From Saccharopolyspora sp. SCSIO 74807 (GTDB lineage: Bacteria > Actinomycetota > Actinomycetes > Mycobacteriales > Pseudonocardiaceae): DNA of 64,000 bases. The position numbers were made by a program, and so were the translations under genes. Shown piece by piece: positions 2,531 through 49,746 of this stretch. The notes below the pieces were generated by a model. The model searched no databases. It had not been told where the DNA came from and saw nothing but the letters and a program-made list of their open reading frames with translations. The stretch spans positions 310,001-374,000 of the forward strand of contig NZ_CP146100.1 of the NCBI RefSeq assembly GCF_037023755.1, given 5' to 3'. Position 1 is the first letter of the stretch; each line of letters starts with the position of its first letter.

Positions 2531-2581
2531 GAGTGAACGGACTGTTGGTCCCACTAGATTGGTCGAACGGGCCGTTCGCTC
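2531..2581 (+). repeat. 51-bp palindromic repeat, copy 1
   Basis: Outer arms GAGTGAACGG and CCGTTCGCTC flank an asymmetric core CCCACTAGATTGGTCGAACG. The core fixes the direction. A CCGACACGCCCGCG block sits 27 nt before the CTGTTGG arm (2490-2503). It lies between the EspG-like 3' end and the MFS 5' end. Confidence 0.9.
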
Positions 2582-2638
2582 GGAACATCGAGGCGTGCCG
2601 ACACTCGCGTAGCTCGCCCGCGCCAGTGGGATTCCGCG

Positions 2639-2689
2639 GAGTGAACGGACTGTTGGTCCCACTAGATTGGTCGAACGGGCCGTTCGCTC
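2639..2689 (+). repeat. 51-bp palindromic repeat, copy 2
   Basis: Identical to copy 1 over all 51 bp and 108 bp downstream in the same orientation. The flanking sequence is also related (CCGACACTCGCG at 2598-2609), so the two form a partly decayed tandem repeat of about 108 bp. A further CCGACACGCC block without a palindrome lies at 2706-2715. Confidence 0.9.
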
Positions 2690-2735
2690 GGAAAGATCGG
2701 GTGCGCCGACACGCCGGGGCACCGGCGGGAAGGCG

Positions 2736-3545
2736 TCAGTCGCCGGTGGTCTCGGTGATGAGTTCCTGCAGGTACCAGGCCAACAGCTGGTTGCTGGAAG
2801 GCGCGACGGTGCTCCACAGCTGCCCATCGCCGTTGGCGCGCACGACGTGCAGGTAGCGCCCGGAGCCGGTGTCGTGGAACGCGACGACCCGCGGCGCGCG
2901 TTCCGGTTTCGAGCCGCGCGTCGGCGCGAATTCGACGCCGAACTGCCCGCGCATCCCCATCCCGTCGGCCATCGCGGCCAGCGTCGCCGCGTCGTCCGCG
3001 CCGACTCCGCGCACCCGCAGCTCGTCGGTCAACGCGCGCGAGTCGTGCTGACCGGCGCCCGCACTCGCGTCGCGGAGCACCTCGTGCGGCACGCTCACCG
3101 CCCGGCCCGCGCCGGGCGGTGCGTCCCCGGCGACCGAGATGACGGCTTCGGCCAGCGAACTCCCCCGCACCGGAGTGAGTTCGACGACGTCACCGTCCAC
3201 AATGGTCAGCAGGCCGGTGCCGCCGTTGCACGCGGCCTGCGCCCGGATCGCGCGATCGGCCCAGATCCGCAGGTCCAGGCTCAGCTTCGGACGGTCCAGC
3301 AGCACCAGCAGGTCGCCGAAGTCCGGATCCACCCGGTCCCGGCGGGATTCGGCCAGCTGCCGGGACCGCAGCTGCGGCCAGACTTCCGCGACGAGTCCGG
3401 CGCGTTCGGTGTGGGTGCGCCCCGGGCTGGGCACGTCCAGCACGATGTGCCGCCGGTCGGTCAGCGCTTCCGCCTCGCAGACCACATCGAATTCCAATGT
3501 GGACAGCGTGATCGGTTCGCCGTCGGCTCCGGGCCGCACCGTCAC
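2736..3545 (-). CDS. EspG-like ESX secretion-associated chaperone
   Basis: This 269-residue protein has the make-up of the EspG family. EspG proteins are cytosolic chaperones that bind the tip of PPE proteins before export through type VII (ESX) secretion (family knowledge). Features supporting this are an N-terminal TLSTLEFDVVCEAEAL, a mid-protein arginine/acid-rich core, and a C-terminal helix SSNQLLAWYLQELI. The strongest evidence is position: its ATG overlaps the stop of the PPE-like gene by 4 nt (3542-3545), so the two are translationally coupled and probably made in fixed ratio. It closes a four-gene transcription unit. The family assignment is less certain than the context. Confidence 0.75.
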   Translation of the reverse strand: MTVRPGADGEPITLSTLEFDVVCEAEALTDRRHIVLDVPSPGRTHTERAGLVAEVWPQLRSRQLAESRRDRVDPDFGDLLVLLDRPKLSLDLRIWADRAIRAQAACNGGTGLLTIVDGDVVELTPVRGSSLAEAVISVAGDAPPGAGRAVSVPHEVLRDASAGAGQHDSRALTDELRVRGVGADDAATLAAMADGMGMRGQFGVEFAPTRGSKPERAPRVVAFHDTGSGRYLHVVRANGDGQLWSTVAPSSNQLLAWYLQELITETTGD

Positions 3546-4774
3546 TCCCGCTCGTCGTCGGGCGCGCGGTCCGCGCCGAACACCGGCGGCGCCACGAGCC
3601 GGTTGTCGTCGAACGGCGTCTCCGGCTCGTAGTACTTGTCCTCGTGCTCGGCGTCGTCGTCGGGCTGCCCGCCGCGGGTCGCGGCCGGTCCCATCATCGA
3701 GCCGGGCCCGGGGCGGCTGGTGGCCGAGCCACCGGCGGTGCGACCCGCGGTGGTGTCACCGGGGCCGCCGCCGACGCCGGACGAGCCGCCGCCTTTCAGG
3801 CTCCCGCCGGATTTGCCGCCGCCACCGGCTGCGCCCGAGCCACCTCCCGAGCCACTTCCCGGCGTCGCACCCTTGCCGCCGAGGAGTTTGCCCGCCGCTG
3901 CCGCACCGATCCCGGCGACGGCCGCACCACCGGCGCCGATCCCGAGCGCACCGCCGAGCCCGATGCCGTCCTGCTGCGGAGCTTCGCCCGGGGCGCGATC
4001 CACGCCGCCACCGGTCGACTGCTCGTCCTCGGGACTGCTGCCGCTGTGCCCGCCGGGCCGCTGACCACCGCTTTGCCCCGGCACGGCACCCGGATAGCCG
4101 CCGCCGAACGCGCCACCGCTCTCGGAGTAGCCGCCGGACCCGGAGCCACCACCGGCCCCCGAGAACGCGCCGACGCCGGAACCGCCCGCGCCGCTGGGAC
4201 TCGCCGACTGGGCGCTGACCCCGGCGGGCTGCATCTCCGGCAACGGCTGGAAGGCGTCCGCCTGCGCGACCGTGGTGTCCCGGTAGGACCCCAGCGCCTG
4301 CTGCGCGACCTGCTTCTGCCCGTCGATCTTCTTGGCTTCTTCGTCGTAGTCACTGGTGTAGCCGAACGCGCCACCGGCCCACTCGAAGAAGTTCTCGTCC
4401 TTCTGGTGCTGGATCTCGGACTGGTTCGGCAGCGTGTTCCGCGCCGACTCGTACCCGCGTCCCTGCGCCTGCACGCCCGTGGCCGAATTCGCCAGCGGAT
4501 CCTGCGACTCGCGCATCACCGCGGTCTGCTGCGCGGTGGCCTGCTGCGCGATGCTGCCCGCGTGGCCCTGCCACTCGATCTCCAACTTGCCGAGCTCGGT
4601 GCGCAGCGTCTCGTCCAGGTCCGCGACGATCTGCGCGCACTGCTGCAGAGCGGTCGCGGCCTGCTCCATCGACTCGGTGCCGCGCCCTTCCTTGATCTTG
4701 CCGATCCACTGCAGCAGCTCGGGAATGTCGAACCCCTGGAACCGCAGGTCCCGAATCGGGTCGAGATCGCTCAT
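3542..4774 (-). CDS. PPE-like type VII secretion substrate
   Basis: This 410-residue protein has a helical N-terminal domain of about 200 residues with a WQG turn at 68-70, the W-x-G signature of PPE/WXG100 helical hairpins. After it comes a long low-complexity Gly/Ser/Ala/Pro region ending in an acidic tail. The ATG at 4774 is preceded by AGGGGGC. In-frame sequence upstream runs into the preceding lipoprotein gene and is not used. The stop overlaps the EspG-like start. By analogy with mycobacteria it should pair with the PE-like protein at the head of the unit and be escorted by EspG. The Gly-rich C-terminus is likely surface-exposed or secreted (inference). Confidence 0.75.
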   Translation of the reverse strand: MSDLDPIRDLRFQGFDIPELLQWIGKIKEGRGTESMEQAATALQQCAQIVADLDETLRTELGKLEIEWQGHAGSIAQQATAQQTAVMRESQDPLANSATGVQAQGRGYESARNTLPNQSEIQHQKDENFFEWAGGAFGYTSDYDEEAKKIDGQKQVAQQALGSYRDTTVAQADAFQPLPEMQPAGVSAQSASPSGAGGSGVGAFSGAGGGSGSGGYSESGGAFGGGYPGAVPGQSGGQRPGGHSGSSPEDEQSTGGGVDRAPGEAPQQDGIGLGGALGIGAGGAAVAGIGAAAAGKLLGGKGATPGSGSGGGSGAAGGGGKSGGSLKGGGSSGVGGGPGDTTAGRTAGGSATSRPGPGSMMGPAATRGGQPDDDAEHEDKYYEPETPFDDNRLVAPPVFGADRAPDDERE

Positions 4775-4794
4775 GCGTGCCCCCTGTAGAACCT

Positions 4795-5412
4795 TCAGCC
4801 CTGCGCTTGCAGATTCGTCACGACTAGTTCGGCCGCCTGCTTGGCCTTTGCGCACTGCTCCTGATTCGACAGCGCTTGAGACTGCAACATCGCGATGTTG
4901 ACCTCGAGCGCCTGCCCTTCGGCAACATCGACGTCCACAACGCAACCGAGGCCTTCGGCACCAGGTGTTTGCGACTGGACCGCGCGGAAACCTTCGCCGA
5001 CGGTGTAAGTCGCGGCAGTCTCCGGAGAACCTGGATCTTTTTGCCCTAGGAGTTCATCGAGACTCATGGGAGCAACAGCTACGCCGATCCCGTAGGGAAC
5101 ACCGCCCGCCGGGCTTTGCCAGATGCAGCCGGGGAAGTCGAGCGTGCCGTCCTTCGGAGCCGGGGACGGCCCAAACGCGCCGATCTGTTGTTCTTGCTCG
5201 GGCTTGATCAAGCCACAGATCTGGGGTTCGGTCAAACCTGCTACTGCGAGCTCGCGCGGCCGGGCAGGCTGCTCGTCCCCAGCCTCGGATGTCGGTGCAG
5301 GCTGCGACGTTCCCGTCGCACCGTTCACCGTGCAACCGCCCGCGGTGACAGCGAACAGAACCGCGCAGGCGACCGCCACACCGATACGCCCCAAAGAAGT
5401 TGTCGTGCTCAA
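4795..5412 (-). CDS. DUF3558-type lipoprotein
   Basis: This 205-residue lipoprotein has a signal sequence with hydrophobic core VAVACAVLFAVTAGGC and lipobox Cys27. A linker rich in Pro/Thr/Glu follows, then a compact domain with conserved cysteines (QICGLI, FPGCIW, LGCVVDV, EQCAKA) as in actinobacterial DUF3558 proteins. The function of that family is unknown. Its ATG overlaps the stop of the PE-like gene by 4 nt, and its stop lies 20 nt before the PPE-like start. It is therefore an integral member of the PE/PPE/EspG unit, which suggests a role at the membrane in handling that substrate pair (inference). Confidence 0.85.
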   Translation of the reverse strand: MSTTTSLGRIGVAVACAVLFAVTAGGCTVNGATGTSQPAPTSEAGDEQPARPRELAVAGLTEPQICGLIKPEQEQQIGAFGPSPAPKDGTLDFPGCIWQSPAGGVPYGIGVAVAPMSLDELLGQKDPGSPETAATYTVGEGFRAVQSQTPGAEGLGCVVDVDVAEGQALEVNIAMLQSQALSNQEQCAKAKQAAELVVTNLQAQG

Positions 5413-5777
5413 ATCATCTTCCCCGGTTTCGCTTGGAAGGACGCTGCAATCTCTTCATCGGTATAGCCGTACTGCTTCGCCGCTTCACCGAGGCGGTGTC
5501 CCAATTGCTCGACCTGCAGCACGTAGCTCATCAGCCGGTTGTAGTGCGAGTCCGGATCACCCATCAGGTTGGCCGTCCAAGTCGCGCTCGCCGCAACACT
5601 GATGTCATCCCTCGCCGGAGAGCGGACCGTGAGGTCTGTCTGCTTGGCCACCAGCTTGTTTCTCGCATCCTCGGCAGCCGCGAGAATCGCTTTACGCGCC
5701 GCGAGGACGTTCTCCGGGGTGACGGTGATCTGTTGGCCTGGACCGCCGGGTGCGGGTGGCGGTGCTGGTGCGGTCAT
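5409..5777 (-). CDS. PE-like small type VII secretion protein
   Basis: This predicted 122-residue protein has a Pro-rich N-terminus, then two helices with a W-containing turn (SATWTANLMG, about 65-73). Next comes YGYTD at 103-107, which fits the general type VII secretion signal YxxxD/E just after a helical hairpin. The ATG at 5777 is chosen because GAGGGGG lies about 9 nt upstream. The ATG at 5795 has no such site. It heads a coupled unit with the DUF3558 lipoprotein, PPE-like and EspG-like genes, mirroring PE-PPE pairs of mycobacteria. It could instead be a WXG100-like protein. The order and secretion motif favour the PE-like partner role. Confidence 0.65.
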   Translation of the reverse strand: MTAPAPPPAPGGPGQQITVTPENVLAARKAILAAAEDARNKLVAKQTDLTVRSPARDDISVAASATWTANLMGDPDSHYNRLMSYVLQVEQLGHRLGEAAKQYGYTDEEIAASFQAKPGKMI

Positions 5778-5795
5778 CGCGGGAAACCCCCTCAT

Positions 5796-5869
5796 GGCGG
5801 CTGATCACCGGTGCGACGCAGACGGTAGCAGCGGAGGTTCCCGGCAGGTGCGACTTCCGCGAACTTCAC
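5796..5869 (-). promoter_or_regulatory. Duplicated upstream element A (before PE-like operon)
   Basis: Read on the minus strand, the block contains GTGAAGTTCGCGGAA, then about 20 nt later CGCTGCTACCGTC, then GGTGATCAGCC close to the gene. A related block with the same order and nearly the same spacing lies at 6317-6391. TGCTACSGT resembles an extended -10 box, but no good -35 box is apparent. Confidence 0.45.
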
Positions 5870-5894
5870 ACCGAGCGCACCGGAGGGCCGCGCA

Positions 5895-6275
5895 TCAGGT
5901 ATTGCCGGTTTCCGGAGGTCGTTCGGCGTCCGCTGCACCGCTGCTGCGGTCAGCGCCGTCGCGAGCAGGGTCGCCGTGGGCCGGACCGGCTGCTGCGGTG
6001 CCGCGCTGGTCGCGTTCGGCCTGTTCTTCGCGGCGTTGCAGGTCGGCGATGCCGGCGAGTTGGGCGCGGGTGGTGTGCACGTGGTCTTGCACGGCGCCGC
6101 CGAGCTTGTCCAGGAAGCCGTTGAGCGCGGCTGCGAGTTCCGGGTTTCCGAGCGCCTCCCCGAGATTTCCGCGCTGCTGGTCCAGGCCCGACTGCGTCCG
6201 GCTCATGCGGTCCAGCTGTTCGTGCGCATCGGACAGTGCCCGCCGAGCGTGCGGGTTCTGGATTTCCTCGTCCAT
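5895..6275 (-). CDS. Small helical protein of unknown function, linked to the PE/PPE module
   Basis: This 126-residue protein is not recognised. Residues about 10-90 are predicted helical and rich in Gln/Leu/Arg. The last 40 residues are charged and disordered. It has no W-x-G turn, signal peptide or membrane segment. The ATG at 6275 is preceded by AAGGAGG with good spacing; in-frame sequence further upstream is non-coding. It lies just upstream of the PE-like operon on the same strand and shares a duplicated upstream element with it. It is therefore probably co-regulated and may be a further substrate or accessory factor (inference). Confidence 0.6.
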   Translation of the reverse strand: MDEEIQNPHARRALSDAHEQLDRMSRTQSGLDQQRGNLGEALGNPELAAALNGFLDKLGGAVQDHVHTTRAQLAGIADLQRREEQAERDQRGTAAAGPAHGDPARDGADRSSGAADAERPPETGNT

Positions 6276-6316
6276 GCTCGGGTTGCCTCCTTGCCAAGCT
6301 GAAATTTCCGCAGCAC

Positions 6317-6391
6317 GACGGCTGATCAGCAATGCGCGGCGGACCGTAGCAGCGCAATTCCGCCGCACGACGAGGATTCCGCGAAGTTCAC
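6317..6391 (-). promoter_or_regulatory. Duplicated upstream element B (before small helical gene)
   Basis: Minus-strand order: TGAACTTCGCGGAA, about 20 nt, CGCTGCTACGGTCC, then GCTGATCAGCC. It matches element A at 5796-5869 at roughly two thirds of positions with the same spacing. The distal part starts at the stop codon of the DUF397 gene. Confidence 0.45.
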
Positions 6392-6645
6392 CGCACTGAC
6401 GTAACGCCGAGCGAACCGACGAACTCCGCCCATCGCCGAGCCGGGACGACCAGCACACCGCCATCCGGGTCCTTCGAGTCCCGCACCCCGACGACCTCGT
6501 CGCCCAAGGCGACCTCGACGCAATTCGCGGTGGTCGCGCTCCGGGTCGACTTGCGCCAGCCGAAGGCGACCTCGACGCAGTTCGCGCTGCTCGCGCTCCG
6601 GCTGGACTTACGCCAGGTCACTTGTTCCGAATGAGGATCTTTCAT
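6388..6645 (-). CDS. DUF397 protein with internally duplicated motif
   Basis: This 85-residue protein belongs to DUF397, small proteins that in actinobacteria accompany XRE/DUF5753 regulators. The normal layout is W(R/K)KSS.S....NCVEVA, then V.VRDSKDP, then a W..F helix. Here the first block occurs twice in tandem: residues 11-29 and 30-48 (19 residues each, 57 bp, 50 of 57 bases identical at 6559-6615 and 6502-6558). The remaining motif, VRDSKDPDGGVLVVPARRW, is present once. It lies 21 bp downstream of the XRE gene on the same strand, the usual pair arrangement. Such pairs influence development or antibiotic regulation in Streptomyces (family knowledge). Confidence 0.85.
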   Translation of the reverse strand: MKDPHSEQVTWRKSSRSASSANCVEVAFGWRKSTRSATTANCVEVALGDEVVGVRDSKDPDGGVLVVPARRWAEFVGSLGVTSVR

Positions 6646-6666
6646 GTCGATAGCATGTCATCGTCG

Positions 6667-7518
6667 TCACCCCAGCTGAACGACCAGCTGTCGCAACCGG
6701 TCAAGCGAGCCCTCGGTGCTGAGCGCGGTCTTTACCAGGTTCTCCCAGGCGGTCCGGTAGACCTCAAGATGCTCGCGCTCTTCCAGGCAGATGCTCGACA
6801 CCATCTGCTCCAACCAGACGGAACCAAGCTCTGCTCCGTATTCGACCAGGATGAATGCTCCGGTCATGCCGACATGCAGTCCTGCATCGGGCGCGAGAAC
6901 CTGCAGGGTCACGTTCGGGAGCTCCGCCTCCTGCATCAGGTGCCGAATCTGCCGCGTTCGGCAGTCTGGCTCACCGAACGGCCGCTGCAACGCAGCCTCT
7001 TCTACGATCACGTGCAGTTCTAGCGGCTTGGCGCCGGTGAGCAAGCCACGCTTTGCGACCCGGCTGCTGACCAGCTCATCGACCTCACGATCGGTCAAAG
7101 AACAGCCGGTAGCCGCGATGACAGCACGCGCGTACTCAGGCGTTTGCAGCAGCCCAGGAATCATCATCGGCTCGTAGTACCGCAGCGCCGTCGCCTCGTC
7201 CTCGAAGTCGCTCCAGGTCTGCCAGTCGGCGGGGAAGTGCGCGTTGCGGGTGCGCAGCCAGCTGCGCTGTTCGGCGTGCCGGGCGATGTCGAGGAGTTCG
7301 ACGCGGCGCAACTTGGCGACCTGGTAGAAATCCAGCAGCTTCTCCAGGTCGTCCAGGTAGATCCCGATCTCGCAGGTTTCGATCCGGTTGAGCTTGCTGC
7401 CGGACATGCCGAGGGCTTTGCCGACCTCTGCGGCGCTCGCGCCGTTCTCGGTTCGGATCTTGCGCAGTGATTGCGCGAGCCTGCGGGATCGAGCGGAAGG
7501 GCCGACACGTCGAGCCAT
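6667..7518 (-). CDS. XRE-family helix-turn-helix regulator with DUF5753-type C-terminus
   Basis: This 283-residue protein has an N-terminal XRE helix-turn-helix (about 15-70: LAQSLRKIRTENGASAAEVG and SGSKLNRIE). The large C-terminal domain has the markers of DUF5753 regulators: YYEPMMIPGLLQTPEYARA, R.AKR, a long E-rich core and a final LR.L. The ATG at 7518 follows GGAGAT. In-frame codons before it are AT-richer and lack a ribosome site. It pairs with the DUF397 gene immediately downstream and probably controls its own divergent promoter region shared with the plus-strand gene at 7666 (inference). TGGTTG and CAACCA arms at about 7534-7559 may be an operator. Confidence 0.9.
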   Translation of the reverse strand: MARRVGPSARSRRLAQSLRKIRTENGASAAEVGKALGMSGSKLNRIETCEIGIYLDDLEKLLDFYQVAKLRRVELLDIARHAEQRSWLRTRNAHFPADWQTWSDFEDEATALRYYEPMMIPGLLQTPEYARAVIAATGCSLTDREVDELVSSRVAKRGLLTGAKPLELHVIVEEAALQRPFGEPDCRTRQIRHLMQEAELPNVTLQVLAPDAGLHVGMTGAFILVEYGAELGSVWLEQMVSSICLEEREHLEVYRTAWENLVKTALSTEGSLDRLRQLVVQLG

Positions 7519-7665
7519 GGTGAATCTCCAGTGGTTGCGGGGGAATCTGTTTTCAACCATGGCAGAACAAATTTGCACTGACGATCACTCGATGGCGTAA
7601 TTGTGTCGGCTACTGCACCTGCGCAATTCTTGGTTCCACGTTGATCTCGACCTCGAGGAGGAGCA

Positions 7666-7965
7666 GTGGACGACAAGATCGCGCGGCTGGAGCACGGCGC
7701 TCCGCAGCGGGAGTGGCTGTGCCGATGCGTCGACGACGACGAGCGGTTCAACATCGCCACCGTCGGCGCGGCCAGCGGCGACGTGGAGATCGCCGGACCC
7801 GAGCTGCAAGGCTGCTTCCGGCTGCGCGACAGCGAAATCGCCGTGTTCCGCCGCGCGCTGGACGAGGCCATCGCGGTCGCGCAGGAAGACATCGCCCGCT
7901 ACGACGCCAACGCCGCGACCCAGCGGGCCGAGCAGGAACCGGACGTTCACACCTCGAACCGGTAG
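7666..7965 (+). CDS. Conserved-looking small protein of unknown function
   Basis: This 99-residue soluble protein is acidic and not recognised. It has a Cys pair (LCRCVDDDE), a predicted beta-rich middle (IATVGAASGDVEIAGPEL) and a C-terminal helix (RRALDEAIAVAQEDIARYD). The GTG start is supported by GAGGAG 4 nt upstream. It is divergent from the XRE regulator, and its 3' end overlaps kdpE antisense by 19 nt. Its placement next to the XRE/DUF397 pair suggests it may be a target of that regulator (inference). Confidence 0.6.
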   Translation: MDDKIARLEHGAPQREWLCRCVDDDERFNIATVGAASGDVEIAGPELQGCFRLRDSEIAVFRRALDEAIAVAQEDIARYDANAATQRAEQEPDVHTSNR

Positions 7966-8627
7966 CCCATGCCCGCTTCGGTGATCAGGTGCCGGGGCCG
8001 GCTCGGGTCGTCCTCCAATTTGCGGCGCAGTTGGGCCAGGTAGACCCGCAGGTAGTGGGATTCCTCCGCGTAGGCGGGGCCCCACACCTCCTTGAGCAGC
8101 TGCCGCTGGCCGACCAGCCGTCCCCGGTTCCGCACCAGCACTTCCAGCATCCCCCACTCCGTCGGGGTCAGGTGCACCTCGGCGCCGTGGCGTTGCACCT
8201 TCTTGGCCACGAGATCCACCTGGAAGCTCTCCGTGCGCACCACGGGTTCGTCCGCGGCGGCGGAATCCCCGGCCCGGCGCAGCGCGGCCCGAAGGCGGGC
8301 CAGCAACTCGTCCATGCCGAAGGGTTTCGTGACGTAGTCGTCGGCTCCGGCGTCGAGCGCGTGCACCTTGTCCGTCGACTCGGTGCGGGCCGACAGCACC
8401 AGCACCGGCACCGTGCTCCAGCCGCGAAGACCCTCGATGACTTGCACTCCGTCCAGGTCGGGCAGGCCGAGGTCGAGGACCACCGCGTCCGGTTTGCCCT
8501 CCGCCGCCAACCGCAGCGCGGTCGTGCCGTCGGCGGCCACGAGCACTTCGTGGCCGCGTGCGGTGAGGTTGATGCGCAGCGCCCGCAGCAGTTGCGGCTC
8601 GTCGTCGACCACCAGGACCTTCGTCAT
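7947..8627 (-). CDS. kdpE: KdpE response regulator
   Basis: This 226-residue OmpR/PhoB-type DNA-binding regulator is the output of the KdpDE potassium/osmotic system and activates kdpFABC. The receiver domain has the acidic pair D8-D9, phospho-acceptor D52 (VVLDLGLPDLDG) and lysine in YVTKPFGMDE. The winged helix begins near residue 130, with LTPTEWGMLEVLV and a terminal GMGYRFEV. The ATG overlaps the kdpD stop by 4 nt. It is the last gene of the kdp operon. Confidence 0.97.
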   Translation of the reverse strand: MTKVLVVDDEPQLLRALRINLTARGHEVLVAADGTTALRLAAEGKPDAVVLDLGLPDLDGVQVIEGLRGWSTVPVLVLSARTESTDKVHALDAGADDYVTKPFGMDELLARLRAALRRAGDSAAADEPVVRTESFQVDLVAKKVQRHGAEVHLTPTEWGMLEVLVRNRGRLVGQRQLLKEVWGPAYAEESHYLRVYLAQLRRKLEDDPSRPRHLITEAGMGYRFEV

Positions 8628-11137
8628 CGGGCCTCCACGCTCGCGGGCAGCGCCAGCACGACCGTGAGGCCGCCCCCGGGAGTGTCCTCGGCGCGGATGG
8701 TGCCGTGCATGGCCGTCATGAAACCCTGCGCCACGCTCAACCCCAAGCCCACACCGGGCTCACCGGTGTCGGTGTGCCCACCGAGGCGCTCGAACGGGGC
8801 GAACACCGAATCCGCGGCACCGTGCGGCAAACCCGGACCGTGGTCGACCACCCGCAGCTCCACCCACGCCGCGTGCTCGCTGGAACGCACGAAAACCCGG
8901 TCGTCGCTGTACTTGAGCGCGTTCTGCAGCACGTTGGCGATGACCCGCTCCAACAGGCCGATGTCGGCGAGCACCGCGGGCAGCGATTCGTCGGCGTCGG
9001 CCTCGACGCGACCACGGCCGTCCAACCCGGCCAGCGCGCCCGCCACGGCCTGGTCGTAACCGACCGGGCGCAGCTTCGGCACGATGGCACCCGTCGCCAG
9101 CCGCGACGAGTCCAGCAGGTTGTCCACCAGGTCGGCGAGCCGGTCGGTGGATTCCTCCACACCGGCGAGCAGCTCGGCGGTGTCCTGCTCGGACAACCGC
9201 AGGTCCGGGGCGCGGAGGCTGCTCACCGAAGCCTTGATCGACGCGAGCGGGGTGCGCAGGTCGTGGCCCACGGCCGACAGCAGCGCGGTGCGCAGCTTGC
9301 TGGTGTCGGCCTCGCGCTGGGCTTGCGCCGTCTCGGCGGCCATCCGCTGCTGGCGCAGCGCGACGAGCGCTTGGCCCGCGGCGGCTTCCAGCACCGTGCG
9401 GTCCGCGGCGGGCAGCGGGCGGCCGCCCGGGAGGTGCAGCACGAGATGCGCGTCCCCGGTGACCTCGATGTCCACATCGGACTCTTCGGGCCGCGAGTGC
9501 GGCGGGGAGCCGGCGGAGGCGGCCACGTGCCAGCCATCCGCCCGTTCCAGCAGCGCCGCGGAGGACAAGCCGAAGTTCTCCACCAGCTTCTCCAGCAGGC
9601 GCGGCAACGGATCGGAGTGCGTGAGCGCGGTGCGCGCGTAGGAAGCCAGCAGCGCGGCCTCGGTCCGCGCGCGGGCGGCGCGCTCCGCCAGCCGTGCCGC
9701 GCGGTCCACCACGACCGCCACCATCAGGCCCGCACCGATCATGCCGAGCACGGTGACCAGGACTTCCGGTCTGCTGACCGCGAGCGAATACCGGGGCTCG
9801 GCGAAGAAGAAGTTCAGCAGACCGCCCGCGAACAACGCGGCGGTCAACGCCGGAGCGACACCTCCGACGAGTGCGACCACGACCGTCGCCAGGAAATAGC
9901 CCACCACGTCCACGGACAGCTCGAAATCGCCGAGCAGCGCGCTCAGCGCGGTGATCAGCGCGGGCAGCAGGAACGCCAGCGCCCAACCCCACGCGCGCCG
10001 GAGGAACGACAAGGGGTTGCGGGCCGCCCGACGCGCCCGGCCGTGACCGGAATGGGCGTGGGTGACCATGTGCACGTCGATCGAGCCGGAACGCTGCACC
10101 ACCGTGGAGCCGATCCCCTCGTCCAGCACGCGCGCCCAGCGGGAACGCCGGGACGTGCCGAGGACGAGCTGGGTGGCGTCGGCGCCGCGGGCGAACTCCA
10201 GCAGCGCCTCCGGCACGTCGTCGCCGACCACGCTGTGGAAGCTCGCACCCACGTCATCGGCCACGCGGCGGGCACCGGCGAGTCCGGCGGGGGACGCTCC
10301 GGCGAGTCCGTCGCCGCGCAGCACGTGCACGACCTGGAGGTCCGCGCCAGCGCGGGCGGCGATGCGGCGGGCGCGGCGGATCAGCGTCTCGCTCTCCGGG
10401 CCGCCGGTGATCGCCACGACCACCCGCTCCCGCGCCTCCCACGTGGCGGTGATGTGCCGCTCCCGGCGGTAGCGGCGCAGCGCCACGTCCACCTGGTCGG
10501 CCAGCCACAGCAGCGCAAGCTCGCGCAGCGCGGTGAGATTCCCGGTGCGGAAGTAGTTGCCCAGCGCGGCGTCCACCCGGTCGGCGGCGTAGACGTTGCC
10601 GTGCGCCAAGCGGCGTCGCAGCGCCTCCGGGGTGATGTCGGCCAACTCGACCTGCTCGGCGCTGCGGACCACCTCGTCCGGGACGGTTTCGCGCTGGCGG
10701 ATCCCGGTGATCGCCTCCACCACGTCGTTGAGGCTTTCCAAGTGCTGCACGTTGACCGTGGACAGCACGGTGATCCCGGCGTCGAGGAGTTCGTCGATGT
10801 CCTGCCAGCGCTTGGTGTTGCGGGAGCCGGGCGCGTTGGTGTGCGCCAGCTCGTCCACGACTGCGACGTCGGGCGCGCGGGCGAGCACGGCATCGAGGTC
10901 CATGTCGGTGACATCGACGCCGCGGTGCGCGGCGCGGCGGCGCGGGACCTCTTCGAGGCCGTGCAGCAGGCGCCGGGTCTGCTCGCGGCCGTGCGTCTCG
11001 ACCAGGCCCACGACGACGTCGGTGCCGCGTTCCGAACGGCGGTGCGCCTCGCCGAGCATCGCGTACGTCTTGCCCACGCCGGGTGCCGCACCGAGGTAGA
11101 TGCGCAGCTCACCACGCTGCTTGCCGCTGTTCACCAC
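8624..11137 (-). CDS. kdpD: KdpD sensor histidine kinase
   Basis: This 837-residue inner-membrane kinase senses potassium limitation and turgor. Domains in order: cytosolic KdpD domain with Walker A GAAPGVGKT (16-24) and DELAHTNAPGSRN; a USP-like ATP-binding region (about 250-360); four close membrane helices (about 395-490); a GAF-like segment; HisKA with phospho-acceptor in VGHDLRTPL; and HATPase with N-box NALKY, DHGPGLP and GVGLGLSV. The length is close to the usual size. It lies 56 bp after kdpC and overlaps kdpE, so the sensory pair is transcribed with the pump genes. Confidence 0.97.
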   Translation of the reverse strand: MVNSGKQRGELRIYLGAAPGVGKTYAMLGEAHRRSERGTDVVVGLVETHGREQTRRLLHGLEEVPRRRAAHRGVDVTDMDLDAVLARAPDVAVVDELAHTNAPGSRNTKRWQDIDELLDAGITVLSTVNVQHLESLNDVVEAITGIRQRETVPDEVVRSAEQVELADITPEALRRRLAHGNVYAADRVDAALGNYFRTGNLTALRELALLWLADQVDVALRRYRRERHITATWEARERVVVAITGGPESETLIRRARRIAARAGADLQVVHVLRGDGLAGASPAGLAGARRVADDVGASFHSVVGDDVPEALLEFARGADATQLVLGTSRRSRWARVLDEGIGSTVVQRSGSIDVHMVTHAHSGHGRARRAARNPLSFLRRAWGWALAFLLPALITALSALLGDFELSVDVVGYFLATVVVALVGGVAPALTAALFAGGLLNFFFAEPRYSLAVSRPEVLVTVLGMIGAGLMVAVVVDRAARLAERAARARTEAALLASYARTALTHSDPLPRLLEKLVENFGLSSAALLERADGWHVAASAGSPPHSRPEESDVDIEVTGDAHLVLHLPGGRPLPAADRTVLEAAAGQALVALRQQRMAAETAQAQREADTSKLRTALLSAVGHDLRTPLASIKASVSSLRAPDLRLSEQDTAELLAGVEESTDRLADLVDNLLDSSRLATGAIVPKLRPVGYDQAVAGALAGLDGRGRVEADADESLPAVLADIGLLERVIANVLQNALKYSDDRVFVRSSEHAAWVELRVVDHGPGLPHGAADSVFAPFERLGGHTDTGEPGVGLGLSVAQGFMTAMHGTIRAEDTPGGGLTVVLALPASVEAR

Positions 11138-11193
11138 CCCATCCTCCTACGCCTCGGTGGTAATAGCGCTTGATCAACGGTTGCAAATTTTCG

Positions 11194-11793
11194 TCAGTGG
11201 TGTCGCGCGGCCGCGTTGAGTTCGGGAACGTTGACGGAACGTTCGGCCAGCACGCCGCCGGACGTGGACTGCGCGATGAGGCGGTGCAGCGCCGCTTCCG
11301 GGATGCCGGTCACGCGGGCCACGCGCGGAACCTGCAGTGCGGCGTAAGCGGGACTGATGCCCGGGTCGACGCCACTGGCCGAAGCGGTCACCGCGTCGGG
11401 CGGAACCGCTTGCGGGACAACGCCTTCCCGGGCGGCCACGGCGTTGCGGCGCTGCTGCACGGCGTCGAGCAGTTCCGCGTTGCCGCCCGCGAGGTTGCTG
11501 CCGCCCGTGCTCGCCGGATCGCCCGACCCGACCGGGTCCGGCGCCGAAGCCGACGGCCGGGTGTGGAAGAACGGGTCGCGCGCCGGATCCGCCGGCACCG
11601 GGTCCACCCCGATCAGCGACGAGCCGACGACCCGGCCGCCGGCCATCAGCGGTGCACCCTCCGCGTGCTGTTCCAGTCCCGGCAACCGGCTCACGCCCCA
11701 CACCGCCAGCGGATACCCGATTCCCAGCAGCACGGTCGCCACCAGCAGCACCTTGAGCCCGGTCACGGTTTGCCGCCACAACGTCCACACCAC
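11194..11793 (-). CDS. kdpC: KdpC subunit of potassium-transporting ATPase
   Basis: This 199-residue protein has one N-terminal membrane helix (about 13-33, VLLVATVLLGIGYPLAVWGV) followed by an extracytoplasmic domain. Family motifs are GSSLIG, FHTRPSA, SGSNLA-like GGSNLAGGN, DAVTASASGVDPGIS and RVARVTG. KdpC assists ATP binding and assembly of the KdpFABC complex. It is separated from kdpB by 100 bp that contain a palindromic repeat, unlike the overlapping genes elsewhere in this operon. Confidence 0.96.
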   Translation of the reverse strand: MVWTLWRQTVTGLKVLLVATVLLGIGYPLAVWGVSRLPGLEQHAEGAPLMAGGRVVGSSLIGVDPVPADPARDPFFHTRPSASAPDPVGSGDPASTGGSNLAGGNAELLDAVQQRRNAVAAREGVVPQAVPPDAVTASASGVDPGISPAYAALQVPRVARVTGIPEAALHRLIAQSTSGGVLAERSVNVPELNAAARHH

Positions 11794-11828
11794 GACGCCA
11801 TCCCTTCCACAACAACGGATTTCTCCGC

Positions 11829-11878
11829 GAGTGAACGGACGTTTGGCCCACTAGCTTGGTCGAACAGGCCGTTCACTC
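11829..11878 (+). repeat. 50-bp palindromic repeat, copy 3, inside the kdp operon
   Basis: Arms GAGTGAACGG and CCGTTCACTC enclose core CCCACTAGCTTGGTCGAAC. It is one base shorter than the other copies. It lies in the 100-bp gap between kdpB (ends 11894) and kdpC (starts 11793). No CCGACAC flank is present. Confidence 0.9.
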
Positions 11879-11893
11879 GCGGCAGCCATGCAA

Positions 11894-13930
11894 TCAGCCG
11901 AAGCCGGGCAACAACCGGATCAGCAGGTCGATCAGCCAGATGCCCGCGAACGGGGCGAGGACGCCGCCGACGCCGAACAGCAGCAGGTTCCGGCGCAGCA
12001 GCGCGGCCGCGCCGGACGGCCGGTAGCGCACTCCGCGCAGCGCCAGCGGGATCAGCGCCACGATGACCAGCGCGTTGAAGATCACCGCGGACAGGATCGC
12101 GGAGTCCGGCGTCGCCAGCTGCATCACGTTCAACCGCCCCAGCTGCGGGTGGATCGCGACGAACAGCGCGGACAGGATCGCGAAGTACTTCGCCAGATCG
12201 TTGGCGATGCTGAACGTCGTCAACGCCCCGCGCGTGATCAGCAGCTGCTTGCCGATCCGCACCACCTCGATCAGCTTCGTCGGGTCGGAATCCAGGTCGA
12301 CCATGTTCCCGGCCTCCTTGGCCGCGGCCGTCCCGCTGTGCATCGCCACCCCGACATCGGCCTGCGCGAGCGCGGGCGCGTCGTTGGTGCCGTCCCCGGT
12401 CATCGCGACCAGCCGCCCGCCGCGTTGCTCGCGGCGGATGAACTCCAGCTTGTCCTCCGGTTTCGCCTCGGCCAGGTGGTCGTCCACCCCGGCTTCGGCG
12501 GCGATGGCCGCTGCGGTGAGCGCGTTGTCGCCGGTGACCATGACCGTGCGCACGCCCATCGCGCGCAGTTCCGCGAACCGCTCGGCGATGCCCGGCTTGA
12601 CCACATCGGACAACCGGAGCACGCCGAGCACCCGGGCCCGCCCACCGGCGCGTTCGGCGACCGCGAGCGGCGTTCCGCCCTGCCGCGAGATCTCCTCCGC
12701 GATCGTGTCCACTTCGGACGATTCGATGCCGGCCCACGCGCACACCGCAGCGACCGCACCCTTGCGGACCTCCCGGCCGTCGAGGTCGATCCCGCTCATC
12801 CTGGTCCGCGCGGAGAACGGCACGACGACACCGGCAGGCTCCCCGGCCTCGATCCCGAACCGCTCGCGGCAGAACTCGACGACGCTGGCGCCCTCCGGCG
12901 TCGGGTCGGCGAGGCTGCAAAGCCGCGCCGCCGCGGCGAGTTCGGCCGCGGTGACCGCTGCGACCGGCGACAGCTCGGTCGCCTGCCGGTTGCCGAAGGT
13001 GATCGTGCCGGTCTTGTCCAGCAGCAACGTGTCCACGTCCCCGGCGGCCTCCACGGCGCGGCCGGACTTGGCCAGCACGTTGCGCCGCACCAGCCGGTCC
13101 ATGCCCGCGATGCCGATCGCCGAGAGCAGCGCGCCGATCGTGGTCGGGATCAGGCATACCAGCAACGCTGCCAACGTGCTCACCGGCAGCAGCGAACCGG
13201 AGTAGGCGGCCATCGGCTGCAACGCCGGCACCGCCAGCAGGAAGATCACCGTGAGCGTGCACAGCAGGATCGTCAGCGCGATCTCGTTCGGCGTCCGCTG
13301 CCGCTTCGCGCCTTCGACCAGCGAGATCATCCGGTCCACGAAGGTCTCGCCGGGCGCGGTGCTCACCCGCACCACGATCCGGTCGGACAGCACGGTGGTG
13401 CCCGCGGTGACGGCCGAGCGATCACCGCCGGACTCCCGGATCACCGGGGCCGATTCGCCGGTGATCGCCGATTCGTCGACGGTGGCGATCCCGTCGACCA
13501 CGTCGCCGTCACCGGGGATCTGCTCGCCCGCTTCGACCACGACGCGATCGCCGACGCGGAGTTCGGCGCCGGGCACCCGCTGCTCGCCGTGCTGGGTGAG
13601 CAGCCGCGCGACCGCCTCGGATTTGGTGCGGCGCAACGATTCCGCCTGCGCGCGACCACGTCCCTCGGCGACGGCCTCGGCGAGGTTCGCGAACAGCACG
13701 GTCAACCACAGCCACACCGCCACCGCGATGTCGAACGCGCTCGGCTCGGCGACGCTCAGCACCGTCACCAGCGCCGAACCCGCCCACACCACGAACATCA
13801 CGGGATTTTTGAGCTGATGGCGCGGGTCCAGCTTGCGCAGCGCCTCCGGCATCGAACCCCACAGCTGCCGCGGGCCGAACGCCGCGGGAGCACTCCGAAC
13901 CGGTGCTTCTCCGCGTTCCAGGACGGTCAT
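11894..13930 (-). CDS. kdpB: KdpB catalytic subunit, P-type K+ ATPase
   Basis: This 678-residue P-type ATPase powers high-affinity potassium uptake. Visible motifs are TGES (158-161) of the actuator domain, IPTTIG (261-266) in the ion-path helix, phosphorylated Asp305 in DKTGT, KPEDK, and the hinge [17 protein letters not shown] near residue 515. Membrane helices lie at about 45-90, 215-290 and three near the C-terminus. The length is normal for KdpB. The ATG overlaps the kdpA stop by 4 nt. Confidence 0.98.
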
Positions 13931-15582
13931 GACAGCGCCTCCGCGATCGGGCCGAGCGCCAACGCTGGCGCGAACGTCAACGCGCTGACGAGCACGACGG
14001 TGCCGCCGAGCAGGCCGGCGAACAGCGGGCCTCCGGTGGGCAGCGTTCCGGCGGTGGGCGGCATCCGCTGCTGCCGCGCGAGCGAACCGGCGAGCATCAG
14101 CACCGCCAGCATCGGCACGAGTCGCCCCAGCAGCATCGCCAACGCCAGCGTGGCCTGGAAGAAGTCACCGGTCGCGGTGAGACCGGCGAAGGCGCTGCCG
14201 TTGTTGTTCGCCGCCGAGGCGTAGGCGTAGAGGACTTCGGACAGGCCGTGCGGGCCCGGATTCGCCATGGCGTCCGACGTGGACGGAAGTGCGACGGCGG
14301 TGCCCGCGCCGAGCAGCACCAGCGCCGGCATCACCAAGGTCGACAGCGCGGCGGCGGTGATCTCGCGGCGGCCGAGCTTCTTGCCCAGGTACTCCGGCGT
14401 GCGCCCTACCATCAGCCCGGCGAGGAACACCGCGAGCACGGCCACCACCAGGATCCCGTACAACCCGGCGCCGACACCGCCCGGCGCCACCTCGCCGAGC
14501 AGCATGTTCAGCAGCACGACGCCGCCGCCGAGGCCGGTGAAGCTGTCGTGCATCGAGTTCACCGCGCCCGTCGAAGTGCCGGTGGTGGCGACCGCGAACA
14601 GCGCCGACAGGTATGGGCCGAAACGGGCTTCCTTGCCCTCCCAGGCACCGCCTGCCGCCAGCGCCGCCTGGCCGTTCGGGTGCGCCTCCGCCCACCACGT
14701 GACCGCGAGCGACACCAGCAGCAACACCGCCATCACCGACAACAGCACCCGGCCTTGCCGCCGATCGCCGGCCATCGTGCCGAAAGCACGGGTGAGGCTC
14801 ACCGGGATGACCAGGATCAGGAAGATCTCCACGAGGTTGGTGGCACCGCTCGGGTTCTCCAGCGGATGCGCGGAGTTCGCGTTGAGCACGCCGCCGCCGT
14901 TGGTGCCCAGTTCCTTGATCGCCTCCTGGCTCGCGATCGGGGCGGTCGCGATCACCTGCTCCCGCCCGTCGAGCCCGACAGCGACCAGGGCGGGCGCGAA
15001 GGTCATCGCGACGCCCAGCGCCACCAGCAGCACCGCCGCCACAGCCGCGATCGGCAGCAACACCCGCACGACACCCCGGATCAGGTCGACCCAGAAGTTG
15101 CCGATGCGGTCGGTACCGGAGCGGGTGAAACCGCGAACCAGCGCGACCGCGACGGCCATCCCGACCGCTGCGGAGAGGAAGTTCTGCACCGTCAACCCCC
15201 CCATCTGCACCGCGTGCCCGATGACCTGCTCCGGCACGTAGGACTGCCAGTTCGTGTTCGTCGCGAAGCTGACGGCGGTGTTGAACGCCATCGCCGGTTG
15301 CACGGAGCCGCGCCCGAAGTTCAGCGGCAGCAGCGGTTGCAGCCGTTGCATCAGGTACAGCAGCACGATCGACGCGAACGAAAGACCGAGAACTCCGGCC
15401 GCGTACGTCGTCCACCGCTGCCCGGAATCGCCGTCGATCCGCAGCAGCCGGTAAAACGCCCGTTCCACCCGCCAGTGCCCGCGATCGGTGTAGACGCGGG
15501 CCAGGTAGTCGCCGAACGGACGATGCACCGCGACCAGCGCCAGCACCAGCAGCACGAGCTGGGCGAACCCGGCGGTCGGCAT
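13927..15582 (-). CDS. kdpA: KdpA potassium-binding subunit
   Basis: This 551-residue membrane protein is the K+ channel-like subunit of KdpFABC, with about ten membrane helices and four degenerate selectivity-filter loops. Recognisable pieces are [58 protein letters not shown] and [16 protein letters not shown], all strongly conserved in KdpA. The ATG shares one base with the kdpF stop (TGATG), and its own stop overlaps kdpB. Confidence 0.98.
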
Positions 15583-15671
15583 CAGAACCTCCCCGGCCGG
15601 ATCAACGCGACCAACAAGTAGGCGACGAGCAGCAACGCGAGCACTCCGCCCGCGACGTTGGCCGCGATCAC
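15582..15671 (-). CDS. kdpF: KdpF small stabilising subunit
   Basis: A 29-residue single-helix membrane peptide begins at GTG 15671 and ends in LLVAYLLVALIRPGRF. The final (R/F)P(E/G)(K/R)F is the KdpF signature. GGAG precedes the GTG by 5 nt. Its stop shares a base with the kdpA start (TGATG). KdpF stabilises the KdpABC complex in the membrane. Confidence 0.92.
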   Translation of the reverse strand: MIAANVAGGVLALLLVAYLLVALIRPGRF

Positions 15672-15751
15672 AACCGCTCCAAACCGCGCAGGATCAGCGC
15701 CAGCACGAGGAATCCGCCGATCAACAACGATGCGAAGGCCAGATCCGCCAC
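15668..15751 (-). CDS. 27-residue membrane peptide coupled to kdpF
   Basis: A 27-codon frame starts at GTG 15751. AAGGAG ends 7 nt before the start, an excellent ribosome site. The peptide is VADLAFASLLIGGF followed by LVLALILRGLERL: one hydrophobic helix with a basic C-terminus. Its TGA overlaps the kdpF GTG (GTGA), so translation is coupled. It is not KdpF, which follows it. I recall similar short frames ahead of kdpF in other actinobacteria but cannot verify this here. It may be an extra small subunit or a leader peptide (inference). Confidence 0.65.
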   Translation of the reverse strand: MADLAFASLLIGGFLVLALILRGLERL

Positions 15752-17912: not shown

Positions 17913-17921
17913 GCGAAGCCC

Positions 17922-17972
17922 GAGTGAGCGGACCGTTCGCCCGGCAAGATTGGTCGAACGGTCCGCTCACTT
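17922..17972 (+). repeat. 51-bp palindromic repeat, copy 4
   Basis: It contains a perfect 16-bp stem, GTGAGCGGACCGTTCG (17924-17939) with CGAACGGTCCGCTCAC (17955-17970), and core GCAAGATTGGT. It starts 10 nt after the asnB stop and can act as its terminator. Confidence 0.9.
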
Positions 17973-18040
17973 CGCGCACATCCGCGCGCGGAACTCCCCG
18001 ACACTCCCGAGTCGCCACTCGATCAGCGGAACTGCTCTCG

Positions 18041-18091
18041 GAGTGAACGGCCTGTTGGTCCCAATAGATTGGGCAAACGGTCCGTTCACTC
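18041..18091 (+). repeat. 51-bp palindromic repeat, copy 5
   Basis: Arms GAGTGAACGG and CCGTTCACTC, core CCCAATAGATTGGGCAAACG. CCGACACTCCCG lies upstream at 17998-18009, followed by GATCAGCG. It sits just beyond the 3' end of the histidine kinase gene. Confidence 0.9.
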
Positions 18092-18108
18092 ATGGAGGAA
18101 CAGCGTGC

Positions 18109-20361: not shown

Positions 20362-20412
20362 GAGTGAACGGACCCGTTCACCAATCCAGCCGGACCAACA
20401 GGCCGTTCACTC
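20362..20412 (-). repeat. 51-bp palindromic repeat, copy 6 (reverse orientation)
   Basis: Read on the minus strand it matches the other copies (arms GAGTGAACGG and CCGTTCACTC, core GGCTGGATTGGTGAACG). The outer block CCGACACGCCCGC lies on its correct side at 20442-20454 on the plus strand as GCGGGCGTGTCGG. It sits between the glycosyltransferase 3' end and the response-regulator start. Confidence 0.88.
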
Positions 20413-20535
20413 CGGGATGCGTTGCGCTGATCGGATGGCGTGCGGGCGTGTCGGCGCGCCTCTCGTAGCGCGCGTGAAGGTCCCCTTTGCCCGGTGCACG
20501 GGAGTCGGGCGGAGGAGACCCGCACTTCGGCGGGG

Positions 20536-48674: not shown

Positions 48675-48908
48675 GTGGTTCAGGCATTCATCCTCATCCA
48701 GACCGAGGTCGGCAAGGCCGCCGCCGTTGCCGCCGAGATCTCCGGGGCGCCGGGCGTGCTCACTTCCGAGGACGTGACCGGCCCGTACGACGTGATCGTG
48801 CGCGCTGAAGCGGAGAATGTCGACCAGCTCGGGAAAATGGTGGTGGCAGGCATCCAGAACGTGGAAGGGATCACCCGCACGCTGACGTGTCCCGTCGTAC
48901 ACCTGTGA
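48675..48908 (+). CDS. Stand-alone Lrp/AsnC ligand-binding (RAM) domain protein
   Basis: This 77-residue protein comprises only the RAM fold: VQAFILIQTEVGKAAAVAAE, GVLTSEDVTGPYDVIVRAEA and VEGITRTLTCPVVH. There is no DNA-binding domain, and the upstream sequence cannot encode one in frame. Such stand-alone RAM proteins form oligomers and may bind amino acids or modulate full-length Lrp proteins. GTG 48675 starts the domain directly. Confidence 0.9.
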   Translation: MVQAFILIQTEVGKAAAVAAEISGAPGVLTSEDVTGPYDVIVRAEAENVDQLGKMVVAGIQNVEGITRTLTCPVVHL

Positions 48909-48944
48909 CGGGGCCTTCCGGCCGCGTCGCGGGACCGTGCTGTA

Positions 48945-49529
48945 GTGGGCGGCGTGTTCGACCAACAGCCGGGAGTTCCCCGTCCGGTGCTGATCGTGGC
49001 GCTCGTGCTCAGCGGGTTGCTGGCCGTCGGCGTCGGCGCGCTCGGACTGGTCTCCTGGTACTCGCAGAAGCAGCAGCGGGACGCGGTCGTGGCCGAGCAG
49101 CAGGCCCGCCGCAGCGGTCCGCTCGCGTTGCCGCCGGTGCCTGCGCCGGACGCGGGCGGGCCGGAGTGCTCGAAGCTGCTCGCGGCGCTGCCGCCGGAAC
49201 TGGTGCTCGACGGTGAACCGGTGCCGCGGCGGCCGCTGGCCGAGCCGGCGCCGCCGGGCACAGTCGCGTGGGGCGACGCCGAGCACGATCCCGTGACGGT
49301 GCGCTGCGGGATGCCCGCACCGGCCGAACTCACCCCGACCTCGCCGCTGGTCGACATCTCCGGGGTGAGCTGGCTGCGGCTTTCCGAGGCGGGCAACACC
49401 TCGTGGCTGGCGGTGGACCGCCCGGTGCACGTGGCGCTGACCGCGCCCGCGAACTCCGGTTCCGGCCCGGTGCAGGACCTCTCCGGCCTGATCCGCCGCA
49501 CCATGCCGAAACAGCCCGTCTTCCCCTGA
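48945..49529 (+). CDS. DUF3515 membrane-anchored protein
   Basis: This 194-residue protein has one N-terminal helix (about 15-37, VLIVALVLSGLLAVGVGALGL) and an extracytoplasmic domain with cysteines in PECSKLL and VRCGMP, then VSWLRLSE...WLAVDRPVHVAL. This matches DUF3515, whose mycobacterial member (Rv2980) occupies the same place beside ddl. Function unknown. GTG 48945 is assumed; GTG 48954 is possible. Confidence 0.85.
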   Translation: MGGVFDQQPGVPRPVLIVALVLSGLLAVGVGALGLVSWYSQKQQRDAVVAEQQARRSGPLALPPVPAPDAGGPECSKLLAALPPELVLDGEPVPRRPLAEPAPPGTVAWGDAEHDPVTVRCGMPAPAELTPTSPLVDISGVSWLRLSEAGNTSWLAVDRPVHVALTAPANSGSGPVQDLSGLIRRTMPKQPVFP

Positions 49530-49574
49530 CGCCGGCCTTCCCCGGACGCCGGTCTCCTCCCGGCCGAACTCCGC

Positions 49575-49625
49575 GAGCGAACGGCCCGTTCGACCAACCT
49601 ATTCGGACCAACAGGCCGTTCACTC
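49575..49625 (-). repeat. 51-bp palindromic repeat, copy 7 (reverse orientation)
   Basis: On the minus strand: GAGTGAACGGCCTGTTGGTC, core AATAGGTTGGTCGAACGG, then CCGTTCGCTC. The outer CCCGACACGCCCGCG block lies at 49654-49668 on the correct side. Located after the DUF3515 gene. Confidence 0.88.
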
Positions 49626-49695
49626 TGCTCGGAGCTGCTCGGAATGGACGATGCGCGGGCGTGTCGGGCAGGCGCCGGGGAGCGAAGTTCACCAG

Positions 49696-49746
49696 GGGTG
49701 AACGGACCGTTCGACCAATCTAGCGGGACGAACAGGCCGTTCACTC
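49696..49746 (-). repeat. 51-bp palindromic repeat, copy 8 (reverse orientation)
   Basis: On the minus strand: GAGTGAACGGCCTGTTCGTC, core GCTAGATTGGTCGAACGG, then CCGTTCACCC. It lies 13 bp from the ddl stop and 121 bp from copy 7. No CCGACAC flank was found. Confidence 0.88.

What the first reader, a model, noticed from the sequence alone, without database searches (positions are those of the whole stretch)
2531..49746. Eight-copy 51-bp directional palindrome family, always intergenic and 3' of genes
Copies at 2531, 2639, 11829, 17922, 18041, 20362, 49575 and 49696 share outer arms GAGTGAACGG / CCGTTCACTC and an asymmetric core close to CCMASTAGATTGGTCGAAC. Seven are exactly 51 bp and one is 50 bp. 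Five occur in plus and three in minus orientation. Each lies just beyond a gene end, often in pairs about 110-120 bp apart in convergent gaps. Exact length with variable arms but compensating changes (copy 4 has a perfect 16-bp stem with different bases) points to selection for RNA or DNA structure. It could be a lineage-specific terminator family, a REP-like mobile element, or a binding site.
Basis: seen in the sequence. Interest (0 to 1): 0.75.

Follow-up and report, generated by a model that had tools for sequence, protein, structure and literature searches.

The report
Dispersed hairpin repeats without known mover
This Saccharopolyspora genome carries well over a hundred copies of a 51-base DNA hairpin that sits between genes, often just after a gene ends; it is built like the copy-spreading REPIN repeats of other bacteria, but the enzyme that normally accompanies those was not found with it.

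Summary
The eight copies are where stated. A profile built from them finds 94 copies in 1.31 Mb of the same Saccharopolyspora genome and none in the reversed-sequence control; whole-genome pattern searches give about 150.

Each copy is two inverted half-sites, each holding a version of the 13-bp palindrome GAACGGNCCGTTC. In the stretches held of five genomes, all 51 neighbouring exact palindromes closer than 50 bp are 30 bp apart. Arms differ less than loop and flanks between sister species. Arms do not covary within this genome, but do across genera. Copies favour convergent gaps and stop codons and mostly avoid divergent gaps. Sister species lack copies at four of the five orthologous window gaps.

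The pattern occurs in 104 of 297 genomes of the family. Of 245 other genomes of the class, 11 match, with at most two hits each.

Best reading: a REPIN-like dispersed hairpin family kept near gene 3' ends. It is not filed as a REPIN (no RAYT, no GTAG head) or a plain terminator (no U-tract; one copy lies between kdpB and kdpC). Mover and function are unproven.

The parts
2531..2581 (+). 51-bp hairpin element, copy 1; 154 nt 3' of the EspG-like gene 2736-3485 (-)
   Evidence: G060 has one copy here instead of two
2639..2689 (+). 51-bp hairpin element, copy 2, identical to copy 1; 46 nt 3' of the same gene
2487..2518 (+). outer 32-bp module, starting 44 nt upstream of copy 1
2595..2626 (+). outer 32-bp module, starting 44 nt upstream of copy 2
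11829..11878 (+). 50-bp variant between a P-type ATPase gene taken as kdpB (11894-13852, -) and kdpC (11194-11793, -), 15 nt after the kdpB stop
17922..17972 (+). 51-bp copy with 18 continuous stem pairs (one G-U), 9 nt after the stop of an Asn-synthase gene, convergent gap
18041..18091 (+). 51-bp copy in the same convergent gap, 17 nt from the stop of a histidine-kinase gene
20362..20412 (-). 51-bp copy between response-regulator and PMT_2 genes, 123 nt after the latter's stop
20426..20457 (-). outer 32-bp module of the 20362 copy
49575..49625 (-). 51-bp copy in the 230-bp convergent gap DUF3515 / D-Ala-D-Ala ligase; the gap is 6, 9, 19 and 77 bp, without element, in four sister species
49639..49670 (-). 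outer 32-bp module of the 49575 copy
49696..49746 (-). 51-bp copy in the same convergent gap, 13 nt from the ligase stop

Best explanation
A REPIN-like dispersed hairpin: a short non-coding element made of two inverted half-sites (each with a 13-bp palindrome) at a fixed spacing. It spreads by copying within a genome with the help of a recogniser supplied in trans, and it accumulates in gaps next to gene 3' ends, where it does no harm and may act as a 3'-UTR hairpin. Shown: the copies, the fixed spacing, slower change of the arms, the 3'-end bias, hairpin pairing kept across genera, lineage-specific presence. Inferred: copying as the cause, the recogniser, any effect on transcripts.
For: About 150 closely similar copies that share a non-palindromic core. 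Exact spacing: 51 of 51 neighbouring exact 13-mers under 50 bp apart are at 30 bp, in stretches of five genomes partly chosen for holding copies. 23 orthologous copies in two sister species: outer arms differ at 23/460 sites, inner arms 41/506, loop 40/207, gap flanks 439/2527. Cross-genus pairing 89.7% of cells against 78.4% shuffled, 80 double-change cells against 28.7, and sliding the partner removes the signal. Of the window's five occupied gaps one holds a copy in any of four sister species; their orthologous stretches hold 0, 1, 1 and 0 copies by the profile that finds 7 of 8 here (G002's contig does not reach the 2320-2736 gap). Tandem units that include flanks and 20 of 23 neighbouring pairs in direct orientation. 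Outer module: 24 of 25 upstream hits start at -43 to -45.
Against: No mover found: the two Y1 hits of G000 are one IS605 and its remnant; by my tally 10 of 48 genomes with 5 or more copies have a Y1 hit, against 51 of 249 others. Between two strains at about 99% identity no clean new insertion was seen over 504 kb. The 3'-end bias is stronger than neutral insertion alone needs. Paralogue homogenisation could also slow the arms. Target duplications: an 8-bp direct word flanks one of three two-module copies, the others share 5 bp or less.
Confidence: 0.58

Rival explanations
1. A lineage-specific family of transcription terminators, bidirectional in convergent gaps, made uniform by gene conversion or selection.
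For: Occupied gaps: 28/112 convergent, 31/424 tandem, 6/176 divergent (convergent against divergent p=6e-8; tandem against divergent p=0.09); in tandem gaps a copy lies within 30 nt of the upstream stop in 17/31 but of the downstream start in 2/31. Other genera: 20 convergent, 11 tandem, 0 divergent of 31 distinct classifiable places among 38 loci, some of them orthologous to each other. Plus-orientation folds -25.6 to -38.1 kcal/mol.
Against: No U-tract: mean 1.5 and 1.3 T in the 10 nt after the stem on either side, 88 copies, where Streptomyces terminators have 3-4 U (PMC12207403, passage). The opposite strand of copy 1 folds weakly (-16.2, 9 of 200 shuffles as good; three other opposite strands -26.7 to -36.3). 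A copy between kdpB and kdpC. Tandem-gap copies show no strand preference, 21 same and 19 opposite. Sister species lack it at most of the same gene ends.
Confidence: 0.2
2. A DNA-binding site for a dimeric or tetrameric protein: two palindromic operators about three helical turns apart, used for chromosome organisation or regulation.
For: Both halves tolerate nearly the same bases, independently; spacing fixed at 30 bp; few indels inside elements (3 against 109 substitutions; 39 against 439 outside).
Against: In other genera the 13-mer symmetry is often broken while hairpin pairing is kept.
Confidence: 0.1
3. A classical MITE with terminal inverted repeats, moved by an unidentified transposase; the 51-mer is its surviving centre.
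For: A 32-bp module flanks the 51-mer at a fixed distance: upstream in 24 of 94 copies, inverted downstream in 6, both in 3.
Against: 67 of 94 copies have neither. Module hits 45, of which 37 near a copy, against 8 in the reversed control; 5 of the 37 are in other placements. One strong module hit has no 51-mer near it. In sister stretches a single module hit (G003, offset -52). In the shown part of the genome list the only facing pair 0.5-3 kb apart that I noticed encloses priA, not a transposase.
Confidence: 0.1

Closest known systems
REPIN (REP doublet forming hairpins), Pseudomonas fluorescens SBW25
   Same: Inverted doublet of a repeated palindrome with a spacer, set distance between the two ends, extragenic, hairpin-forming, tandem clusters of near-identical units that include flanks (PMC3116915, passages)
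   Different: No RAYT found with it; 13-mers 30 bp apart against 16-mers 71 bp apart; biased to gene 3' ends where REPIN doublets are described as randomly distributed in extragenic space; in Pseudonocardiaceae
REP / BIME with RAYT
   Same: High-copy palindromic intergenic repeats, often clustered, with palindromes kept by complementary mutations (PMC2817692, passages; abstract start)
   Different: No GT(A/G)G head; no rayt gene between inverted copies
Intrinsic terminators of GC-rich actinomycetes
   Same: Stable hairpin after stop codons; weak U-tracts are usual in Streptomyces (PMC12207403, passages)
   Different: One dispersed sequence including its core, fixed length, arrays of 2-6 in sister species, an intra-operon copy, still fewer T
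Bacterial MITEs
   Same: Non-coding, intergenic, inverted outer modules on a few copies
   Different: Most copies lack the modules; no parent transposon found; target duplication seen in at most one of three

Membership tests
REPIN | Inverted doublet of a repeated palindrome at fixed spacing, able to fold into a hairpin | tested here: met
   51 of 51 close pairs at 30 bp; eight copies fold with z -4.6 to -8.0; cross-genus pairing
REPIN | Many copies, extragenic | tested here: met
   about 150 per genome; none of 74 copies overlaps a called gene by 10 nt or more, with my own crude gene caller
REPIN | A RAYT (Y1) gene in the genome, next to the repeat | tested here: not met
   4 of 6 genomes of the genus have no PF01797 hit yet 113-242 copies; the G000 hits are an IS605, which by chance or not has a copy 101 nt away, and its remnant, which has none
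REP | GTAG / GT(A/G)G head at the hairpin base | tested here: not met
   at most 3 of 94 copies have GT(A/G)G at any one place within 15 nt outside the stem
Intrinsic terminator | U-tract after the stem | tested here: not met
   mean 1.5 and 1.3 T in 10 nt over 88 copies; none of the 11 terminator-like sites in 2300-21000 is at a copy, by a scan limited to loops of 3-8
Intrinsic terminator | Transcript 3' ends at the element | not testable with these tools
   no RNA data held
Intrinsic terminator | Location 3' of genes rather than before promoters | tested here: met
   59 of 65 occupied gaps convergent or tandem, 6 divergent
MITE | Terminal inverted repeats on full copies | tested here: inconclusive
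   both modules in 3 of 94 copies, one in 24
MITE | Target-site duplication and a parent transposon | tested here: inconclusive
   8-bp direct word at one of three two-module copies; no transposase between facing modules in the shown part of a cut list
Rfam RNA families | Match at the curated score | tested here: not met
   0 in the window at gathering score; permissive hits on 17900-18110 are all below the cut-offs

The most novel reading that the evidence does not exclude
A family-wide REPIN-like system of Pseudonocardiaceae that spreads without a RAYT by an unknown recogniser of two 13-bp palindromes 30 bp apart. Genomes differ in their hairpin 'dialect', changed in step on both arms, and the elements have been taken on as 3'-end hairpins.
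Probability: 0.3. Interest if true: 0.75.

Novelty: new variant of a known kind. Interest (0 to 1): 0.56.

Why it matters
In the passages I saw, REPINs are tied to RAYT transposases. A family with the same architecture, over a hundred copies and no RAYT would show either that another enzyme can drive such repeats or that the architecture arises for another reason. Because orthologous gaps with and without the element exist in close relatives, its spread and its effect on transcription can be tested directly.

Tried and rejected
RAYT as mover: a PF01797 gene 101 nt from one copy looked promising, but it is an IS605 with tnpB; its remnant has no copy in its 3.3-kb locus, and four sister genomes have copies without any Y1 hit. 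Faster change by ectopic conversion: own against G060 differences are 16/1071 in elements and 79/2781 in flanks (53/2667 without one misaligned tandem site), so not faster. A regulator operator defined by the 13-mer alone: no covariation within it, and its symmetry is often lost in other genera. Uptake-sequence idea: GAGTGAACGG occurs 102 times in elements, 10 outside, reversed control 0; but the shorter GTGAACGG occurs 87 times outside against 23 in the control, so this is weakened, not excluded. Rfam: nothing at curated scores.

Literature: the searches showed no description of this family in the listings printed (one search listed 20 of 343 papers, 12 of 40, 10 of 12; searches found none). 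PMC3610266 (outline and passages) mentions no such repeat; PMC3733652 and PMC6006769 hold none of the actinobacterial names searched. PMC8355165 and PMC12207403 were seen as passages. Only open-licence PMC papers are covered.

Dropped or mishandled rows: one search left out the three 3-kb loci, and 1 copy lay in no counted gap; my script mis-centred L240 and called it 'inside', one more locus was 'inside', 4 were at edges, and L239/L251 and L241/L253 overlap; one search used 36 of 38 loci. The gene caller is my own simple one. Stretches were partly chosen because copies were there; 10001-514000 was chosen to match a G060 contig. My notebook's '40 copies in 80 kb' for G001 is wrong; it is 31.
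Full report
WHAT IS THERE. The eight window copies are as described. A profile made from seven of them finds 74 copies in 864 kb, the weakest scoring 53.7, against nothing at 15 or more in the reversed sequence. Over 1.313 Mb there are 94. Whole-genome pattern counts are about 150. The organism is a Saccharopolyspora: the genome held as same species (G060) has a contig of 512,363 bases like one of Saccharopolyspora sp. HNM0986, and G002's 76,188-base contig matches one of Saccharopolyspora sp. NFXS83.

ANATOMY. The own-species half-site is GAGYGARCGGMCYGYTSGTCC, followed by a nine-base core that usually ends in GATT, then the inverted half. Sister-species halves contain near-perfect GAACGGNCCGTTC. 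In stretches of own and four sister genomes every one of 51 neighbouring exact 13-mers closer than 50 bp is at 30 bp. A search allowing spans of 30-89 bp found 51 as by far the commonest span in all four sisters (44, 26, 15 and 34 matches). In own, 24 of 94 copies carry a 32-bp module starting 43-45 nt upstream, 6 a mirrored one ending near +96, 3 both, which gives a form of about 141 bp. The module scan has noise: 45 hits against 8 in the reversed control. It was seen once in the sister stretches and once strongly without a 51-mer. Neighbouring own copies within 200 bp are mostly in direct orientation (20 of 23), 64-134 bp apart.

PLACEMENT. In the own sample 28 of 112 convergent, 31 of 424 tandem and 6 of 176 divergent gaps of at least 60 bp are occupied; tandem against divergent alone is not significant (p=0.09). 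In the contiguous 10001-514000 stretch the figures are 10/34, 8/182 and 0/59. In tandem gaps a copy is within 30 nt of the upstream stop in 17 of 31 and of the downstream start in 2 of 31. Each sister genome shows the same direction with small numbers; only G002 is significant for convergent against divergent (p=0.02) (all). One window copy is inside the kdp gene row, 15 nt after the stop of a P-type ATPase gene directly followed by kdpC.

HISTORY. Five window gaps hold copies. In four sister species, mostly 77-90% identical to the window in the aligned blocks, only the Asn-synthase/kinase gap holds one, in two species; their orthologous stretches hold 0, 1, 1 and 0 copies. The ligase/DUF3515 gap is 6, 9, 19 and 77 bp there without an element, and 230 bp with two here. 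S. spinosa has weakly matching hairpins in that gap (scores 30.0 and 33.8). Over 504 kb, own and G060 each have 23 profile hits. 21 pair up, two of those pairs with one unmatched flank; one site on each side is present in the other strain with a 1-2 bp indel that the profile misses; one tandem unit is missing in G060; and one degraded copy is missing here, which could be a deletion. So I saw no clean recent insertion, and the burst looks older than the strain split.

CONSTRAINT. Between sister species G001 and G002, 23 orthologous copies differ at 5.0% of outer-arm, 8.1% of inner-arm and 19.3% of loop positions, against 17.4% of gap flanks. Copying among paralogues could also lower arm divergence, so this is constraint or homogenisation. 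Of the changed pairs, 23 one-sided changes keep pairing, 21 break it, 11 create it, and 3 are double changes that keep it; this comparison does not by itself show selection on pairing.

STRUCTURE. Within the genome arms do not covary; pairs 11-41 and 13-39 are matched less than expected and mixed half-types are in excess, for example CCT with ACC 16 against 11.0 expected and CCT with CCT 1 against 4.0. Across genera the picture reverses: in 36 of 38 loci from two searches, 89.7% of cells pair against 78.4% shuffled, ten pairs change on both sides, and sliding the partner by one to three columns removes the signal. The loci were picked by a pattern that holds 24 of the 36 paired positions to within three mismatches and many rows come from one genus, so the size of the effect is uncertain; the five inner pairs that the pattern leaves free also covary.

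RANGE. The double palindrome with up to three mismatches occurs in 104 of 297 family genomes, own and genus included, and in 20 of 46 genera; the reversed pattern gives at most 2 in any genome. By my tally 48 genomes hold five or more. In a class-wide sample 11 of 245 other genomes match, none with more than two hits. Three other genera show chains at 30-bp steps.

HOW IT MOST LIKELY WORKS. The best fit is a REPIN-like unit: copied within genomes by something that recognises the two half-sites, then retained where insertion is harmless, chiefly next to stop codons. Whether it ends transcripts, protects them or does nothing is not shown. Against a plain terminator stand the low T content, the kdp copy and its absence at most sister gene ends. 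Against membership of the REPIN or REP families stand the absent RAYT and GTAG head. By my tally, 10 of 48 carriers and 51 of 249 others have a Y1 hit.

Noticed in passing
G000:C1:2447842-2448204 (L049) and 4665956-4666261 (L051): An IS200/IS605 element with tnpA and divergent tnpB, and an internally deleted remnant of it.
   Followed up: partly
G060 C29 near 18631-18698, 167332-167527 and 257684-257803: What looks like a second intergenic repeat family (GCGGCGAAGCCGCT ... GGTTCTCAGGCGT), present in G060 and absent at the same places in the window genome; similar sequence in G004 between kdpB and kdpC.
   Followed up: no
G017:C1:2127629-2127731; G270:C19:96362-96464; G123 several contigs: Chains of the 13-bp palindrome at exact 30-bp steps in other genera.
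   Followed up: no
G001:C1:830001-910000: 31 copies in 80 kb, in arrays of 2-6 per gap beside transport, oxidoreductase and siderophore-type genes, while 80 kb around the window's orthologue has none.
   Followed up: partly
window 61004-61400: 15-bp tandem repeats, perhaps coding for a lysine- and alanine-rich tail.
   Followed up: no
L082:11060-11330 (Saccharopolyspora spinosa): The same ligase/DUF3515 gap holds hairpins of a different sequence but similar build, as if the gap is reoccupied.
   Followed up: partly
G000:C1:4750158-4750189 (L257:5157-5188): A strong outer-module hit with no 51-mer near it, just beyond the end of a minus-strand gene.
   Followed up: partly
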